From Candidatus Poseidoniaceae archaeon (GTDB taxonomy: Archaea; Thermoplasmatota; Poseidoniia; Poseidoniales; Poseidoniaceae), in assembly GCA_949373075.1 (NCBI GenBank), contig CASIBX010000012.1:1-43703 (forward strand): DNA of 43,703 nucleotides. Reading direction: 5' to 3'. Below are positions 10,611 to 43,703 of the stretch, piece after piece. How positions within the stretch are numbered: position 1 is the stretch's first letter; the number at the start of each line of letters is the position of its first letter. The translations under genes and the position numbers were made by a program. The notes under the pieces are model-generated. The model was not told the DNA's origin, searched no databases, and worked only from the letters and a program-made list of their open reading frames with translations.

Positions 10611-16103
<5,493 letters not shown>

Positions 16104-25630: not shown

Positions 25631-28600
25631 TCAACGGTCTGCCATGAAGGCATCAAGTCGACTAGAAATGTCCTCTTTGGGTTCTTGTTTTGGTTCCAAA
25701 TCAGTTTTGATTTCATGTCGCAGCGCAGATAGTCTTCCACTTGCAGTTGAATCATCAATATCAATTACTTCTTCTTCAAGTTCAATTTCAACTTCAGGTT
25801 CAGGGTCCGGAAGTTCTTCCTCAAACGGCTCGTCACCAAGACTCATGTCATCGATGGTCATCTCCTCATCAGGTTGTGTCTCTTCAACCACTTCCTTTCT
25901 GATGACAGGCTTTTCCTTCTTTGTCACTGCAGTTTCTGGTTTCTTTAAGTTTAGTACTCCACCGAAATAAGCGAGTACTATGAGGATTAATGCAATTCCT
26001 CCAGTCCAGTAAAGGTCCGATGATTCATATGTTACCAGAGGCAAATTATCGGCATACACTTTCATCGAGTTATCGGAGGAGTCATCATCTACATCCCATG
26101 GTGCTAGGCAAGAAATCGTAGCAGTAACTTCTGCGCCATCATCAATTTTCTCAGGTCTATCGATTTCTATACTTGGTGCATATTTACTTCCATGAATGTC
26201 AACAGCGATTGATTTCTGCCAATTTCCATCTGTTTTAGCAATATTTACTTGACAGATGGAGCCTTCCATAATTTCGTACCCTTCTCTATCAATTCCTACA
26301 TTTATTGAATCATCATCAATATTGAAATTAGATATCTTCAGGTTCCATCCAGACTGTCGGGCTATATGCTCGGATACAGTTGAAAGAAGTGATAGCCCGT
26401 TTGAATCTACAATTAAGATCTCTACAGTTACAAGTCCAGGTTCTGGGTCCCATGATAATGCAGACAGGTTTACTGTCATGTTATCACCTGGGCTCAGTCG
26501 TATAGTGCGACTGTCAAGCATTTCACCATCACTAGTCCTCAGCCAAGCATTAGCCACCAATGGGTGTTCTGAATTAGCAGTTAACAAGCAGGAAGTCCAA
26601 AGAGTAGAAGTTTCTTCTATTCCTAAGCTTGCCAATGCTCCGAATGCGTTATCGCAATTAGCCTGATGGATAGGGGCAGGTATTCCGTACAAATGTAATG
26701 CCATTCCGTTGTGTGTGGTGTTACTTCTCGTTTCTGGAAGTGGCACCAATGAAGTTACTACACCATCACTAGACGAGTCTGTTGAAACAGATACTTTCTC
26801 ACCCGACCGCCCGGTGTGAACTGGGCTGGATATCAGCACAGTGTCGCTTTGGGTCACTGTTATTGCGTGAACCAATGTTCCTAATGTTGGATGCTCTAAT
26901 TGTATGTCTAACTGAAAATTATTCTCATTCCAATCATTTGTCGGTTGGAGTTGCAATGGCATTCCCTTAATCTCACCGGGAGCAACCACGACTACTTCTT
27001 CGCTGACAAGTAGCCAACCTGATGGTAGGTTAGGTACCGATAATTGCATTATTGCGACATCATTTCCTGTATTTTCTATCCAAGCAGTTGGCCAAGATGA
27101 AACATCCTGTCGTACCATCCATGCTCCATTGGAGTCGAGTGTAATTCCAGGAGCAGTTCCAACTCTGACTGGAACTTGTTCTACAATTTGTCCTGCTCCA
27201 TTTCCATTAGATATCCGTATGCTAATGATTCCAACTTCACCCGCAACAGCGTCTTCGGGGGGCGTTACGGTTATTGTGATTGTACCTGAATCTCCAGGTT
27301 CTATCATTGGCCCATTATTTGGAAGAGTTACATTCCAACCCTGTCCGGCTTTAGCGAAATACGGCATAGCGGGTTCGTTACCTTTCTGTTCGACGAGGAT
27401 TTGTAGTTCTCCTCCTTCAGGAGCAACTTCCAGAGAAGTGTTCGATAAGTCTAATCGCCATCCAGCTACAGTCTCAACCTCTAATTCAATGCTGGTTTCA
27501 TCATCGATGTCAAAGCCACTCGATGACGCTATTAGTGTTAGGTTGGCTATTGTTCCCGCCCATGAATTTTCAGGAATAGTTACATTGAGAATAAGAGGTT
27601 CAGTTTCCATTACTTGCAACCGAGAAGAATTGATGGAATTAGCCTGCCAAGTTGATGTGTCGTTTCCTGAATGTGCAACCGCAAACGAAGGAGTCAAAGT
27701 TAGTACATCATCGGTGTTTCCTATATTTGTAATATTAATGCTGAGGCTTAACTCATCACCTGGTGCGACTTGAATCCAACTTCCCTGTTCGATTTCAACA
27801 TCCCACCTATGGTCAGGCCTTGCTTCTATGGTAATGTTGGCTCGGTCACTAACGGAGGTGTCACCGGTGCTTGTCCAATCAAATATAATTTCAAATGTCT
27901 CTCTTGCAGGTACATCTTCCGGTAGTGTAACCCATACAGGTACCATTGTGAGTCCTCCTGCTCCGATTGTTCTGGTAGGATTAGATATTTCGAAAAGCAC
28001 TTCAGGAGCCTGTGATAAATTACCAGCATTTGTACTGCCTACCAGCGTGAAAGTATCTTCTCCATTACCTGGGTTTTGCAATTTGAGAATGATTTTTGTA
28101 CGTTCACTGACATTGAATACAGCTCCATCTGCTGGCGTTACAACTTCAGCTTCTGCCCTGAATACTTGTAACACATGTAATGAGATTGATAAATCTGAAT
28201 TCGCAACTAATGATTCACTTTGATTGAAGTGATGGCGCATAGGCGGTGCATCTAGTGGTAGGTCAAGATGAAGTAATCCATTTTGACCAGTCATTTCAAG
28301 CATAGTTCCATTGATAGCCAGATCACCACTTGCACTCCAAACCCATCCTTCCTTCAGCATGCCGCAACTAGACATGTCCCACTGTAATGTGGTGCCTGCA
28401 TAGTTTGAATCAATGTCCCATGATAGGCCAGCAGTTGGTACAGTTCTGATGTGTGGTATATCTGTCGATACATTACTGGCGAACACAGTTACCGTGAAAT
28501 CTTCACAAATCTCCTCATCCCCTGAACCAATGCACAAAGTAAGTGTCGAAGATGTCGAATCTCCTAGTGTTTTGGTTGCTGGAACTTCAAACTCGATTAG

Positions 28601-31168
28601 ATATTCTTCTTTGGCACTCGAGTCCAATTCAATACTCCATTGTGTATTACCCGAATAATCTACTATAATTGTATCAGAACTCCAGGAGTTTGATGACCAT
28701 TGCATTTCAGTAGTCTCTTGTGCATTACCTACATTTTCAACAAGTAACCAGACATGTGCTACGTCACCTGGCTGGCCATATCCCACTCCTAACGGGAGAC
28801 CTGCAGCACCCTGTAAGGATAGGCCACGTGTTCTTTCAACTTCTAATGGCAATGTGACCGTCGAAGATATATTTTCATTCTGGTCAAGTATCAAAGTCAG
28901 TGGTATCTGTGCATCATCAGAACCCATCGCATTTTGCGGTACAGAGAATTCAAATTGAACAATCTGAGCAACATCTCTTTCAAGATTTAGTTCGAGGTCC
29001 GCTGAATTTACTGGTACAAATGTCCATCCGGCTGGAAGCTCAGAGTTGTCGTAACCTAGGCTCCATGCTGCACTACGGCTACCCGTACTGGTTATTGTAA
29101 CATCAACGATTTGCGATGAGCCAGGCAATGCTCTTGAAATTTCAGATGGTGTTTGAATCTGAGCCACATAAGGCTCCAATACAACCAATGTTGTACTAAA
29201 ATTGTCATTATCGTATCTCGATTGTGTCAGATTGTTATTGATATCCAATACCAATTCCACTGTGTGAACACCTAATGTTGCCTCTACATCAACGCTGAAT
29301 GAGATTGGACCGCCTTCGCCAGAAGGAGCGACAGATTCTGCAACATTAACCCTGTGTCTTTCAATTTCAACTCCATTGAGTAGTAACACAGCATCGACTG
29401 GTTCATCAGTATCTACAATTCCTATGTTGGAATATTGCCCTGAGATAGTTACCATTTCCCCTGGGTCAGGGTCGGTAGGGGTGAAACCAATTCCCCTCCC
29501 ATCTGCTAAAGGTGCAATGTCAGAATTAGCTTCGCTGATCAAAGCATCTCCAACGAGTATGTCCAAATATCCATCTCCATCCATGTCTGCTATTGCAGGG
29601 GCTGCCCATGTCCTGTGTGGCAAATCAATTGGTGCAGACCATCCGGTTCCAATGTCTGCAGAGGTACCTGTATTGCCGTCAAAAGCAAATACTCGCCTGC
29701 CAAAAGCAACCAATAACTCGGGCTCATCTTCTCCATCTAAATCGATAGAGACTGGTGGTGACACTGCGATTTCATCATTGTCAGTACCTCCGCCTCGTTG
29801 TAATGTTCTCGACCATTCTCTGAATGGTGGGTCGATTGTAATGTCGTGACAGCCAGTAGAGCCAGCCCTTTCAGTTAGGGATTCCGGATACCAAGTAACC
29901 CAGCACACTCGGTCAGAAACACCGTTTCCGGTTGTATCGACAGCCAATGGCTCTGCGTCTGCATAACCATTTTTCGCTCTGAACCTCCATAACTCACTGA
30001 TGCTAGTCAACTCCATGCCCACATACTGGGCACCCATTCCTTCATCGCCAGCATTGCTATCCACTGGTAGTGTCAAAATCATTTCAGGTGCAGCATCTGA
30101 GTCCAACTGTGTAATCACGGGACCAGGTAGTCTCAGCCTAGGTGTGTCTTGGTCAGCATCTGTTCCTTGAATGGAAACTCCGTCCCAATCGAGAGAACCT
30201 GTGGCTCCATCGATTTTCCAAACCCACATATTTCCATTGTTTGAATTGACCGTAGTTAGCACCACTGCCCCGTTATTATCGTCAAGCGCTACGAATGCAG
30301 GATCAGAGGGGTGGGTTCCCTTATCAAGAGAGACCTTCCAATCAGTTTCAGGAGTTTGAAGTCCTAATGGAATAGATAGAATCGTAGGATCATCAGTTGA
30401 TGTATCGACTGCAGCAATCACTAACTCTGGGCTACCATCGAGAGATAGGTCCGCAAGTAACGGTTGGGTGACCGAGAGGTGATTGGATTGACTAGTGATC
30501 CAGTGTGGGCTTGTTATTCCAATACGCAAATCCCCGTCAGACCATGACCATAATCGCTCATTAGAGTGGCCAGATGAAGCCCATCCTGACTCATCACATG
30601 ACATGTCAGGGGACCATAAATCTACTTTTAGAGCCGAGTCTGTATCGTATGCAATGGCTATTTCGGGTTTACCATCTCCATCTACATCCACAATAGTTGG
30701 AGTCGAACGAATGTATTTTGCATCTCCAAGATTTACTTTCCACGCCACTTTTGCACTATCGCCTTCGACAATTGCAAGTATTCTTTCAGAATTTGAAGGG
30801 TCAGTATGAGTCATTACAGCAAACAAGTGGTTTTGCCCACAGCGCTCTTTTGCACCTTCAGGTGATGTGATTGACGCTGAGAAATTGGCTATTGCAACTC
30901 CATATCCATCGGCTCCTAGTCCTGAATCAAAGGCGACCCAGTTCACCCCTGGTGTCTCAATAGTCTGTAATCCTGAATCTCCATGCTGTGGTAATATTCG
31001 TGAATGTCCTGGATCTCTGCCATATTGAGCCCATGGCTGGGATAATGGTTCCCATGAGCCATTATCATCTTCACCATCTGCTTGTGTTGGAACTGGAATT
31101 ATGATTGTAGATGCGAGCAGAATGAATAACATCACAACGGCTCGGAATTGTCTGTGCATACTACTCAC
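25631..31168 (-). CDS. Giant (1845 aa) secreted, membrane-anchored protein: N-terminal FG-GAP/VCBS-like beta-propeller, multiple CARDB/Ig-like domains, C-terminal TM and acidic tail
   Basis: Signal peptide (FRAVVMLFILLASTIIIPVPTQA); propeller motifs VDVDGDGKPEIAIAYD, DLSLDGSPELVIAA, IDLDGEDEPELLVAF, ADMDGDGYLDILVGD; many 'ENVGNAQETT/NIGNTDDVL' motifs; TM WTGGIALILIVLAYFGGVLNL; acidic tail EEELPDPEPEVEIELEEEVIDIDD. Confidence 0.85.
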   Translation of the reverse strand: MSSMHRQFRAVVMLFILLASTIIIPVPTQADGEDDNGSWEPLSQPWAQYGRDPGHSRILPQHGDSGLQTIETPGVNWVAFDSGLGADGYGVAIANFSASITSPEGAKERCGQNHLFAVMTHTDPSNSERILAIVEGDSAKVAWKVNLGDAKYIRSTPTIVDVDGDGKPEIAIAYDTDSALKVDLWSPDMSCDESGWASSGHSNERLWSWSDGDLRIGITSPHWITSQSNHLSVTQPLLADLSLDGSPELVIAAVDTSTDDPTILSIPLGLQTPETDWKVSLDKGTHPSDPAFVALDDNNGAVVLTTVNSNNGNMWVWKIDGATGSLDWDGVSIQGTDADQDTPRLRLPGPVITQLDSDAAPEMILTLPVDSNAGDEGMGAQYVGMELTSISELWRFRAKNGYADAEPLAVDTTGNGVSDRVCWVTWYPESLTERAGSTGCHDITIDPPFREWSRTLQRGGGTDNDEIAVSPPVSIDLDGEDEPELLVAFGRRVFAFDGNTGTSADIGTGWSAPIDLPHRTWAAPAIADMDGDGYLDILVGDALISEANSDIAPLADGRGIGFTPTDPDPGEMVTISGQYSNIGIVDTDEPVDAVLLLNGVEIERHRVNVAESVAPSGEGGPISFSVDVEATLGVHTVELVLDINNNLTQSRYDNDNFSTTLVVLEPYVAQIQTPSEISRALPGSSQIVDVTITSTGSRSAAWSLGYDNSELPAGWTFVPVNSADLELNLERDVAQIVQFEFSVPQNAMGSDDAQIPLTLILDQNENISSTVTLPLEVERTRGLSLQGAAGLPLGVGYGQPGDVAHVWLLVENVGNAQETTEMQWSSNSWSSDTIIVDYSGNTQWSIELDSSAKEEYLIEFEVPATKTLGDSTSSTLTLCIGSGDEEICEDFTVTVFASNVSTDIPHIRTVPTAGLSWDIDSNYAGTTLQWDMSSCGMLKEGWVWSASGDLAINGTMLEMTGQNGLLHLDLPLDAPPMRHHFNQSESLVANSDLSISLHVLQVFRAEAEVVTPADGAVFNVSERTKIILKLQNPGNGEDTFTLVGSTNAGNLSQAPEVLFEISNPTRTIGAGGLTMVPVWVTLPEDVPARETFEIIFDWTSTGDTSVSDRANITIEARPDHRWDVEIEQGSWIQVAPGDELSLSINITNIGNTDDVLTLTPSFAVAHSGNDTSTWQANSINSSRLQVMETEPLILNVTIPENSWAGTIANLTLIASSSGFDIDDETSIELEVETVAGWRLDLSNTSLEVAPEGGELQILVEQKGNEPAMPYFAKAGQGWNVTLPNNGPMIEPGDSGTITITVTPPEDAVAGEVGIISIRISNGNGAGQIVEQVPVRVGTAPGITLDSNGAWMVRQDVSSWPTAWIENTGNDVAIMQLSVPNLPSGWLLVSEEVVVVAPGEIKGMPLQLQPTNDWNENNFQLDIQLEHPTLGTLVHAITVTQSDTVLISSPVHTGRSGEKVSVSTDSSSDGVVTSLVPLPETRSNTTHNGMALHLYGIPAPIHQANCDNAFGALASLGIEETSTLWTSCLLTANSEHPLVANAWLRTSDGEMLDSRTIRLSPGDNMTVNLSALSWDPEPGLVTVEILIVDSNGLSLLSTVSEHIARQSGWNLKISNFNIDDDSINVGIDREGYEIMEGSICQVNIAKTDGNWQKSIAVDIHGSKYAPSIEIDRPEKIDDGAEVTATISCLAPWDVDDDSSDNSMKVYADNLPLVTYESSDLYWTGGIALILIVLAYFGGVLNLKKPETAVTKKEKPVIRKEVVEETQPDEEMTIDDMSLGDEPFEEELPDPEPEVEIELEEEVIDIDDSTASGRLSALRHEIKTDLEPKQEPKEDISSRLDAFMADR

Positions 31169-41537: not shown

Positions 41538-42665
41538 TTATGGATTATTGAATGGGTGGTCTTCAGGACTTTCGTCCCACCCGGTTGGACCCACAACATA
41601 AATTGTGTTTTTCGTTTCAACTCTTGCTGTAGCTCTTTCATCATATGTTATTGCCTGAATTGCTGATGATTTGACCGGCCCTTCACCTAATTTTGGATGA
41701 GCATATGCATAGCCTCTCAGTTTTTGATCCGAAATGAGAGCATCACGAATAACTACTTCGGGTTTGATTTGCGATAATTCTGAATCTTCGGAACCAATCA
41801 TGTATTTGGCAAGAGAGCGATAGTCAATTTCAAAATCTAATCCATTACCCCTATTTGGAAAGATATTCACAAATTCTTCCATTACCTCATCCATTGATAT
41901 TGGGTCATCACCCATTTCAGTGAGGATCGAGAAAAATTCTCTCGCAGAAATTGCTCCACTCTTATCTGTATCAAACACTTGGAATGCTTCTATGAGTTCT
42001 CTTTCTGCTTTCGATTCGTTTTCGATATAATCTTGTACATCTTTCGATTCCTCATTCAGAGGTACGATCCTTTCCCATTCTACTTTATACTCAACATCAC
42101 CATCATCAAAATGGATGTTGAATGAATTATTTGCGTTTTCGCTGGCGATTTTGCCGGGGTAATAATGGCCAAGGTTTCTCCAATTAACAAACACTCTGCC
42201 TCCTTGTTTGAACGGTACACTGGCTGGACGGATTGTTCCAGGTGAGGTCCCAATTACTACGGCTAATTTAGTTTCAATAACCGAATCCTTAGGAACTTCA
42301 ACTCTGTAAGTTCCGTCATCATTCAGCGCTACAACTTTGCATCGATTTAGCCAACGTTCATTCGTTGGGCTATGGTATTCTACATGGTCTCCAACTTGGA
42401 AAAACTGAGGTAGTTCAATTTCGGGAGTTGGAAGGGATTGCTGTGGAGTAGTATCTCCAAGCATTCCTAACTGTTGCAGTGCTGTGATAACCGCAGCAGT
42501 AACTGCAGCAGGGTCGTTATTGATCACTGTATTACTTACTACGTCACCACCAATCACAGAATCCTGCATGTTGATCTGATTCCCCTCTGAAGAGGGTGGC
42601 GCGGGAATCCACTCATTTCCAGTCCACATAAATTTACCATCAGGGCTCATTACAGGGTCGCTCAT
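41538..42665 (-). CDS. Multidomain protein: N-terminal DG..W..EWIP tag, Tudor-like beta-barrel segment(s), EF-hand
   Basis: MSPDGKFMWTGNEWIPAPP; QGGRVFVNWRNLGHYYPGKIASENANNSFNIHFDDGDVEYKVEWERIVPL (Tudor/Agenet-like); LIEAFQVFDTDKSGAISAREFFSILTEMG (EF-hand loop DTDKSGAISARE). Confidence 0.75.
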   Translation of the reverse strand: MSDPVMSPDGKFMWTGNEWIPAPPSSEGNQINMQDSVIGGDVVSNTVINNDPAAVTAAVITALQQLGMLGDTTPQQSLPTPEIELPQFFQVGDHVEYHSPTNERWLNRCKVVALNDDGTYRVEVPKDSVIETKLAVVIGTSPGTIRPASVPFKQGGRVFVNWRNLGHYYPGKIASENANNSFNIHFDDGDVEYKVEWERIVPLNEESKDVQDYIENESKAERELIEAFQVFDTDKSGAISAREFFSILTEMGDDPISMDEVMEEFVNIFPNRGNGLDFEIDYRSLAKYMIGSEDSELSQIKPEVVIRDALISDQKLRGYAYAHPKLGEGPVKSSAIQAITYDERATARVETKNTIYVVGPTGWDESPEDHPFNNP

Positions 42666-42978: not shown

Positions 42979-43044
42979 CGCAATTTTGTGTTTCCAGTAA
43001 GTCATAAGGGGATTGTTGATACATCAAAGTCTCGAGGGAACAAT

Positions 43045-43703
43045 ATGTCAGCCCCCATCTTATCCGATGATGGGTTCTGGAAATTTGATGAAGGAGAATG
43101 GATTCCAACTGAAAAGCAACTGCTATCAATAGCGAATGGAGCGATTCCCCATGATGCTTTAGAAGAACAAACTGTTCTCATTGACAGCAGTAAGACCAAG
43201 AGAAATTCTTTCTCAGCATTTTATTCCAACATGCGCCCTGAAACTCGATTGTATTCCTTCGTTGGAGTTTGTGTTTCTGTGACTTTTCTATCGCTAATCC
43301 TTGTTCTAGCATCGCTTCCAATCAACTCAAGTATTGTTTTGCCAGTGACTGACTGCTCAAAAAATGAATCACTACAGGTAATTGGGGCTGCATCTGTAGA
43401 TAGTAGTCCTCTGATGGAAGAAGAAAACTGCCCTCACGAATTAAAAATTGCTTCATGGAATTTAGAAAACTTTGGACAATCTAAGGCCAACAACCCTGAG
43501 GAATTATCTGAAATTGCAGGGAAGATCAGAAACTATGACATTGTTGCTGTTCAGGAGATAGAGGATAAAAATACAGGCACTGCACCCTACATTCTTCAGG
43601 ATGAAATTGATGAAATATCGGAGTATGGCATGGTACTATCCAATCGCACAGGGGCTTTTTGTGAGGAGAAATCTAATTCATACATTTCTGAGCAATACGC
43701 TTT
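43045..43703 (+). CDS. Membrane-anchored endonuclease/exonuclease/phosphatase (DNase I-like) protein, partial at window end
   Basis: Open to the window edge and absent from the ORF track: MSAPILSDDGFWKFDEGEWIPTEKQ...TRLYSFVGVCVSVTFLSLILVLASLPI (TM)...ELKIASWNLENFGQSKANNPEELSEIAGKIRNYDIVAVQEIED: EEP motifs WNLENFG and D.V..QE. Confidence 0.85.
   Translation, partial: MSAPILSDDGFWKFDEGEWIPTEKQLLSIANGAIPHDALEEQTVLIDSSKTKRNSFSAFYSNMRPETRLYSFVGVCVSVTFLSLILVLASLPINSSIVLPVTDCSKNESLQVIGAASVDSSPLMEEENCPHELKIASWNLENFGQSKANNPEELSEIAGKIRNYDIVAVQEIEDKNTGTAPYILQDEIDEISEYGMVLSNRTGAFCEEKSNSYISEQYA

What the first reader, a model, noticed from the sequence alone, without database searches (positions are those of the whole stretch)
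41538..42665. Tudor-like plus EF-hand protein in an archaeal genome
Seen: one ORF combines a short W-rich N-terminal tag, a conserved-looking segment INMQDSVIGGDVVSNTVINNDPAAVTAAVITALQQLGM, one or two Tudor/Agenet-like beta-barrel segments (QVGDHVEYHSPTNERWLNRCKVVALNDDGTYRVEV and GGRVFVNWRNLGHYYPGKIASENANNSFNIHFDDGDVEYKVEWERIVPL), a canonical EF-hand loop (DTDKSGAISARE), and a C-terminal segment RGYAYAHPKLGEGPVKSSAIQAITYDERATARVETKNTIYVVG that looks like a separate module. Known: Tudor-family modules read methylated Lys/Arg or bind nucleic acid, mostly in eukaryotes; EF-hands bind calcium. Inference: a cytosolic Ca-responsive adaptor (no TM or signal peptide seen). I do not recall a described archaeal system with this layout.
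Basis: partly seen in the sequence, partly recalled or inferred. Interest (0 to 1): 0.72.

Follow-up and report, generated by a model that had tools for sequence, protein, structure and literature searches.

The report
Tudor–EF-hand adaptor of marine archaea
Marine Group II archaea carry an order-wide family of soluble proteins that join Tudor barrels (domains that in animals read chemical marks on proteins) to a calmodulin-like lobe, and in several lineages the gene sits next to, or is fused with, a gene for a flotillin-type membrane-scaffold protein.

Summary
The ORF is real, but on the minus strand (41541-42665, 375 aa). It belongs to a family spread through the archaeal order Poseidoniales; no full-length relative was found outside it. 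Prediction and profile searches confirm two SH3-like Tudor barrels (a 53BP1-type aromatic cage is conserved in the second), a paired EF-hand lobe, and separate end modules. The claim of a Ca-responsive adaptor is only partly supported: the window's own EF loop is canonical, but the key position-12 Glu is Lys or another residue in about half of relatives, and the second EF loop is degenerate. New here: in both families of the order the gene lies head-to-head with a two-gene operon (helical protein plus SPFH protein), and in one genus the whole cassette is fused to the SPFH coiled coil. I read the family as a soluble adaptor of an SPFH membrane scaffold that binds clients through its Tudor cages. 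For the window's own genus this is inferred only: that neighbourhood is absent, and the C-terminal Tudor-knot of most relatives survives only as a decayed remnant. Tudor-like plus EF-hand proteins are known from bacteria, where they are secreted; the intracellular, SPFH-linked archaeal form appears undescribed. Ligand and Ca binding are untested.

The parts
41538..42665 (-). Tudor-EF-hand protein, 375 aa (stop codon 41538-41540)
   Evidence: homologues
42588..42665 (-). residues 1-26: N-terminal W-tag (SPDGKFMWTGNEWIP), a module shared by many Poseidoniales proteins and replaced by a zinc ribbon in some orthologues
42462..42575 (-). residues 31-68: conserved DSxxxGDxx..TxxNND..AVTxAV segment, a low-confidence loop followed by one helix
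   Evidence: invariant columns; helix 52-65
42216..42404 (-). residues 88-150: Tudor-like barrel 1
   Evidence: strands 94-147; tandem-Tudor Foldseek matches
42054..42212 (-). residues 152-204: Tudor barrel 2 with conserved cage W162, Y/F169, F/Y186, D188
41781..42044 (-). residues 208-295: EF-hand pair; second loop degenerate
41937..41972 (-). residues 232-243: canonical EF loop DTDKSGAISARE
   Evidence: conservation
41550..41765 (-). residues 301-372: C-terminal beta module (GYAYAHPKLGEG...YVVGPTGW), no Pfam or PDB match; matches standalone proteins of about 126 aa
41455..41535 (-). frameshifted and internally deleted remnant of the C-terminal Tudor-knot barrel that most orthologues carry (MQIYVEWKRSW...)
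   Evidence: intact versions

Best explanation
The gene encodes a soluble modular adaptor of Poseidoniales. Shown or predicted: N-terminal W-tag (or zinc ribbon), two Tudor barrels, an EF-hand-pair lobe, a beta module and, in most orthologues, one more Tudor-knot barrel. Inferred: the family works with an SPFH-domain membrane scaffold (flotillin/HflK-C class) encoded with a 175-aa helical protein. The N-terminal part would join the scaffold's coiled-coil end, where the natural fusions place it. The Tudor barrels would bind cationic or methylated Lys/Arg peptides of client proteins through the conserved cage. The EF lobe would be a calmodulin-like helix-binding or structural module that binds Ca2+ only in some branches, possibly including the window's. 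Which clients are bound, and why, is unknown.
For: Fusion: in genus g9 one frame reads SPFH, coiled coil, W-tag, Tudor, EF, C-module (L124, L096, L129). Adjacency: head-to-head with the helical-SPFH gene pair in both families of the order, on at least five separate branches of the tree. Of 9 sampled genomes holding both the Tudor-EF gene and this SPFH type, 7 have them adjacent or fused (count; genomes are related, three genera). SPFH identity: Pfam Band_7 24.0 vs 23.6 bits and Foldseek HflK/C 2e-8, prohibitin, flotillin, vault. In the fusions the W-tag cassette sits where the other SPFH type of the same order carries a C-terminal zinc ribbon, and zinc ribbon and W-tag also interchange on the Tudor protein. 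Tudor fold: Sgf29 9.8e-5, PHF20 Tudor TM-score 0.88; cage invariant or aromatic-for-aromatic in 48 sequences.
Against: The window's own gene is next to TauE, a cysteine desulfurase and a subtilase, conserved only in its genus. Genus g1 genomes searched have, with one possible exception (G243, 3% contamination), only the distant zinc-ribbon SPFH type. Co-occurrence across genomes is not significant (9 of 23 vs 28 of 123, Fisher p 0.12), and many genomes have the SPFH pair without any Tudor-EF gene. The whole-protein model has pTM 0.46, so domain arrangement is not known, and residues 26-76 are low confidence. No direct interaction evidence exists.
Confidence: 0.5

Rival explanations
1. Calcium-responsive adaptor: Ca2+ binding to the EF loop changes the shape of the lobe and gates Tudor binding.
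For: The window's loop DTDKSGAISARE has ligands at 1, 3, 5, 9 and 12 and passes Pfam EF-hand gathering; its clade keeps this pattern.
Against: Position 12 is non-acidic in about half of relatives and position 5 is mostly Thr; the second loop lacks ligands, so at most one site remains per lobe.
Confidence: 0.2
2. Nucleic-acid or chromatin reader: the tandem Tudor binds DNA, RNA or a methylated chromosomal protein.
For: Closest solved relatives are histone readers (Sgf29, KDM4A, 53BP1, PHF20) and the cage is conserved.
Against: The protein is acidic (61 D+E vs 31 K+R), the genomic links are to a membrane-scaffold protein, and no chromatin gene was seen nearby.
Confidence: 0.12
3. Lineage-specific domain-shuffled protein with little present function, in decay in the window's clade.
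For: The C-terminal Tudor-knot is broken in the window and in L073; domain content varies widely; many genomes of the order lack the gene.
Against: The remaining 375 residues keep strong conservation in every module across the order.
Confidence: 0.1
4. Cell-envelope peptide binder like the secreted bacterial chromo-like proteins.
For: Those bacterial proteins also combine chromo-like domains with EF-hands (PMC5906684).
Against: No signal peptide or TM segment; in genus g9 fused to an SPFH protein with no visible signal sequence.
Confidence: 0.04

Closest known systems
Tudor / chromo-like (Royal) superfamily, 53BP1, PHF20, KDM4A and Sgf29 type
   Same: SH3-like barrels, tandem arrangement, conserved aromatic cage plus Asp
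   Different: Archaeal, combined with an EF lobe and lineage-specific end modules; ligand unknown
Secreted bacterial chromo-like domain proteins (Kaur et al. 2018, PMC5906684)
   Same: Prokaryotic chromo-like barrels, tandem copies, sometimes with an EF-hand
   Different: Those are consistently secreted; this one has no signal peptide and links to an SPFH scaffold gene
EF-hand / calmodulin lobe
   Same: Paired EF-hand helices; Pfam and PDB matches
   Different: Second loop degenerate; first loop loses ligands in about half of relatives
Bacillus subtilis PspA-YdjGHI SPFH system (PMC8581546)
   Same: An SPFH protein without its own membrane anchor, encoded with partners that determine its location
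   Different: No PspA, YdjG or YdjH homologue was shown here; the partners are a Tudor-EF protein and a helical protein

Membership tests
Tudor / chromo-like superfamily | SH3-like five-stranded barrel | tested here: met
   AlphaFold strands 94-147 and 157-202 at pLDDT about 80-87; Foldseek to Tudor structures
Tudor / chromo-like superfamily | Significant sequence match | tested here: met
   Relatives pass Pfam gathering; profile vs KDM4A 1.6e-7 and 53BP1 9e-7; the window protein alone is below gathering
Tudor / chromo-like superfamily | Aromatic cage residues | tested here: met
   Barrel 2: W162 48/48, Y/F169 48/48, F/Y186 48/48, D188 48/48; equivalence to 53BP1 by alignment and cage positions recalled from the literature
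Tudor / chromo-like superfamily | Binding of methylated Lys/Arg | not testable with these tools
   needs a peptide-binding assay
EF-hand, Ca2+-binding | Helix-loop-helix pair | tested here: met
EF-hand, Ca2+-binding | Canonical ligands in the window's loop | tested here: met
   DTDKSGAISARE, first loop only
EF-hand, Ca2+-binding | Ligands conserved in orthologues | tested here: not met
   position 12 is E or D in 37 rows and K in 35 of those compared; second loop degenerate
Secreted bacterial chromo-like proteins | Signal peptide / secretion | tested here: not met
   no hydrophobic N-terminal stretch
SPFH-scaffold accessory protein (role) | Gene linkage or fusion to an SPFH protein in the family | tested here: met
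SPFH-scaffold accessory protein (role) | Same linkage at the window's own locus | tested here: not met
   different neighbours

The most novel reading that the evidence does not exclude
An intracellular archaeal reader system: tandem Tudor cages bind methylated Lys/Arg on client proteins and hold them at an SPFH membrane scaffold, with Ca2+ control in some branches. This would be a Tudor-type mark-reading module in prokaryotes outside the cell wall and outside chromatin.
Probability: 0.15. Interest if true: 0.8.

Novelty: new variant of a known kind. Interest (0 to 1): 0.5.

Why it matters
Tudor-type readers are usually thought of as a eukaryotic chromatin tool whose ancestors were secreted bacterial proteins (PMC5906684). 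An abundant, uncultured marine archaeal order with soluble Tudor barrels, conserved cages and a genetic tie to an SPFH scaffold gives a concrete place to ask whether archaea read protein methylation inside the cell, and what SPFH scaffolds do in archaea.

Tried and rejected
Operon partner at the window locus: TauE, TM401, cysteine desulfurase and subtilase are conserved only inside the genus. Homologues in the wider class and phylum: the only hit outside the order is a single Tudor on a multi-helix membrane-like protein of another family. Identity of the C-terminal module: no Pfam, NCBIfam or PDB match. Phyletic co-occurrence with SPFH as support: not significant. Weak NCBIfam hits (XopAW 13 bits, XerD 12 bits) are far below cut-off and rejected as EF-hand-like or chance. 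Helical partner: no Pfam match. Papers on Marine Group II plus Tudor, or SPFH plus Tudor plus archaea: none found.

Full report
Location and reality. The ORF at 41538-42665 reads on the minus strand; on the plus strand it holds 14 stops. The window's genome is a 1.62-Mb, 60%-complete assembly. Its nearest named relatives are Candidatus Poseidoniaceae, i.e. Marine Group II archaea (94% identical protein in CASIAP010000010.1). Among 291 genomes of the order, 166 have at least a partial match and both families have near-full-length homologues. Searches of about 200 genomes each of the class and phylum gave no full-length hit outside the order.

Domains. Pfam puts EF-hand models above gathering in the window protein; Tudor models are below it there and well above it in relatives. 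The AlphaFold model (48 sequences, mean pLDDT 72) shows two barrels, a four-helix EF pair and a C-terminal beta module; residues 26-76 are unreliable. Foldseek returns tandem Tudor and Agenet structures first, and calmodulin complexes for the lobe. A profile of barrel 2 finds KDM4A and 53BP1. In the alignment with 53BP1 the residues matching its cage W, Y, F and D (positions recalled from the literature) are W162, Y169, F186 and D188, invariant or aromatic-for-aromatic in 48 of 48 sequences.

EF-hand. In 44 aligned orthologues loop position 1 (Asp), the central Gly and the Ile are invariant, but position 3 varies (N, D, G), position 5 is mostly Thr and the second loop lacks ligands. In the wider set position 12 is Glu or Asp in 37 rows and Lys in 35 (nine zinc-ribbon rows matched a wrong motif there and are not counted on). 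Canonical loops cluster in the window's part of the tree. So the fold is conserved and calcium binding is not; the window protein may still bind one Ca2+.

Modular variation. Most orthologues end with an extra Tudor-knot/Agenet barrel (two in L028), some with a further CNGTY domain; some start with a zinc ribbon instead of the W-tag, and one such group carries three Tudor barrels. The window copy lacks the last barrel: directly after its stop codon a remnant (MQIYVEWKRSW...) survives in another frame, internally deleted, and L073 shows separate damage of the same barrel. The W-tag also heads TPR, membrane and other proteins, and the C-terminal module also occurs almost alone or on a membrane protein.

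SPFH link. In genus g9 the cassette is the C-terminal half of an 860-residue protein whose N-terminal half is an SPFH domain and coiled coil. In other genera a separate gene of that SPFH type, preceded by a gene for a 175-aa helical protein, is head-to-head with the Tudor-EF gene. SPFH identity rests on a Pfam Band_7 match in one member and on Foldseek to HflK/C, prohibitin, flotillin and vault. Linked loci fall on at least five branches of a low-resolution tree. Among 9 sampled genomes holding both, 7 have them adjacent or fused; chance for one genome is of the order of 0.2%, but the seven come from only three genera, so the binomial figure overstates the case. A second SPFH type, present in the window's genome after an ABC transporter, carries its own C-terminal zinc ribbon, and the g9 fusion carries the W-tag cassette at the matching place. 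I take this as evidence that W-tag and zinc ribbon are alternative modules at the scaffold's end.

Limits. The window's genus lacks the linked arrangement, presence and absence across genomes do not correlate significantly, and no ligand, Ca2+ or interaction test was possible. Function is therefore inferred for the family and more weakly for this copy.

Known context. Kaur et al. 2018 describe bacterial chromo-like domains as consistently secreted, sometimes with EF-hands, and rare in euryarchaea (PMC5906684). In B. subtilis the SPFH protein YdjI depends on partner proteins for membrane location (PMC8581546). I found no paper describing a Tudor-EF or Tudor-SPFH protein in archaea, within an open-access library only.

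Verdict. Real, well conserved, and a new variant of a known kind. The calcium claim is weakened; the SPFH link is the more interesting and more testable part.

Noticed in passing
window 42988-43701 (+): Divergent neighbour with a degenerate W-tag (ILSDDGFWKFDEGEWIP), a TM segment and the start of an endonuclease/exonuclease/phosphatase domain; it runs off the contig end.
   Followed up: partly
window 10611-12760 (+): A subtilase split over two overlapping ORFs (profile 1-93 and 104-288), which looks like a frameshift or pseudogene.
   Followed up: no
L045, L042, L100, L116 and others, between C-module and last Tudor-knot: An extra domain (CNGTYLPS..GDQWWYLADRNSLDTKRGDYYRVKSSSDTPP) with no Pfam match, present in one part of the family.
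   Followed up: no
L065, L066, L068, L071 (TPR-like or repeat proteins), L069, L070, L173: The W-tag, usually with a DSxxxGD segment, heads many otherwise unrelated Poseidoniales proteins and looks like a lineage-specific adaptor tag.
   Followed up: partly
L172 4247-6027 (own genome, G000:C43): Helical plus SPFH gene pair with a C-terminal zinc ribbon, directly after an ABC transporter operon (solute-binding protein, permease, ATPase); the same order occurs in L175.
   Followed up: partly
L178 2577-3398, L179 2682-3524, L180 2585-3466: In another family of the class a single Tudor barrel precedes a multi-helix membrane-like protein.
   Followed up: partly
window 25634-31168 (-): A giant 1845-aa protein with FG-GAP and NEW3 domains, probably exported.
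   Followed up: no
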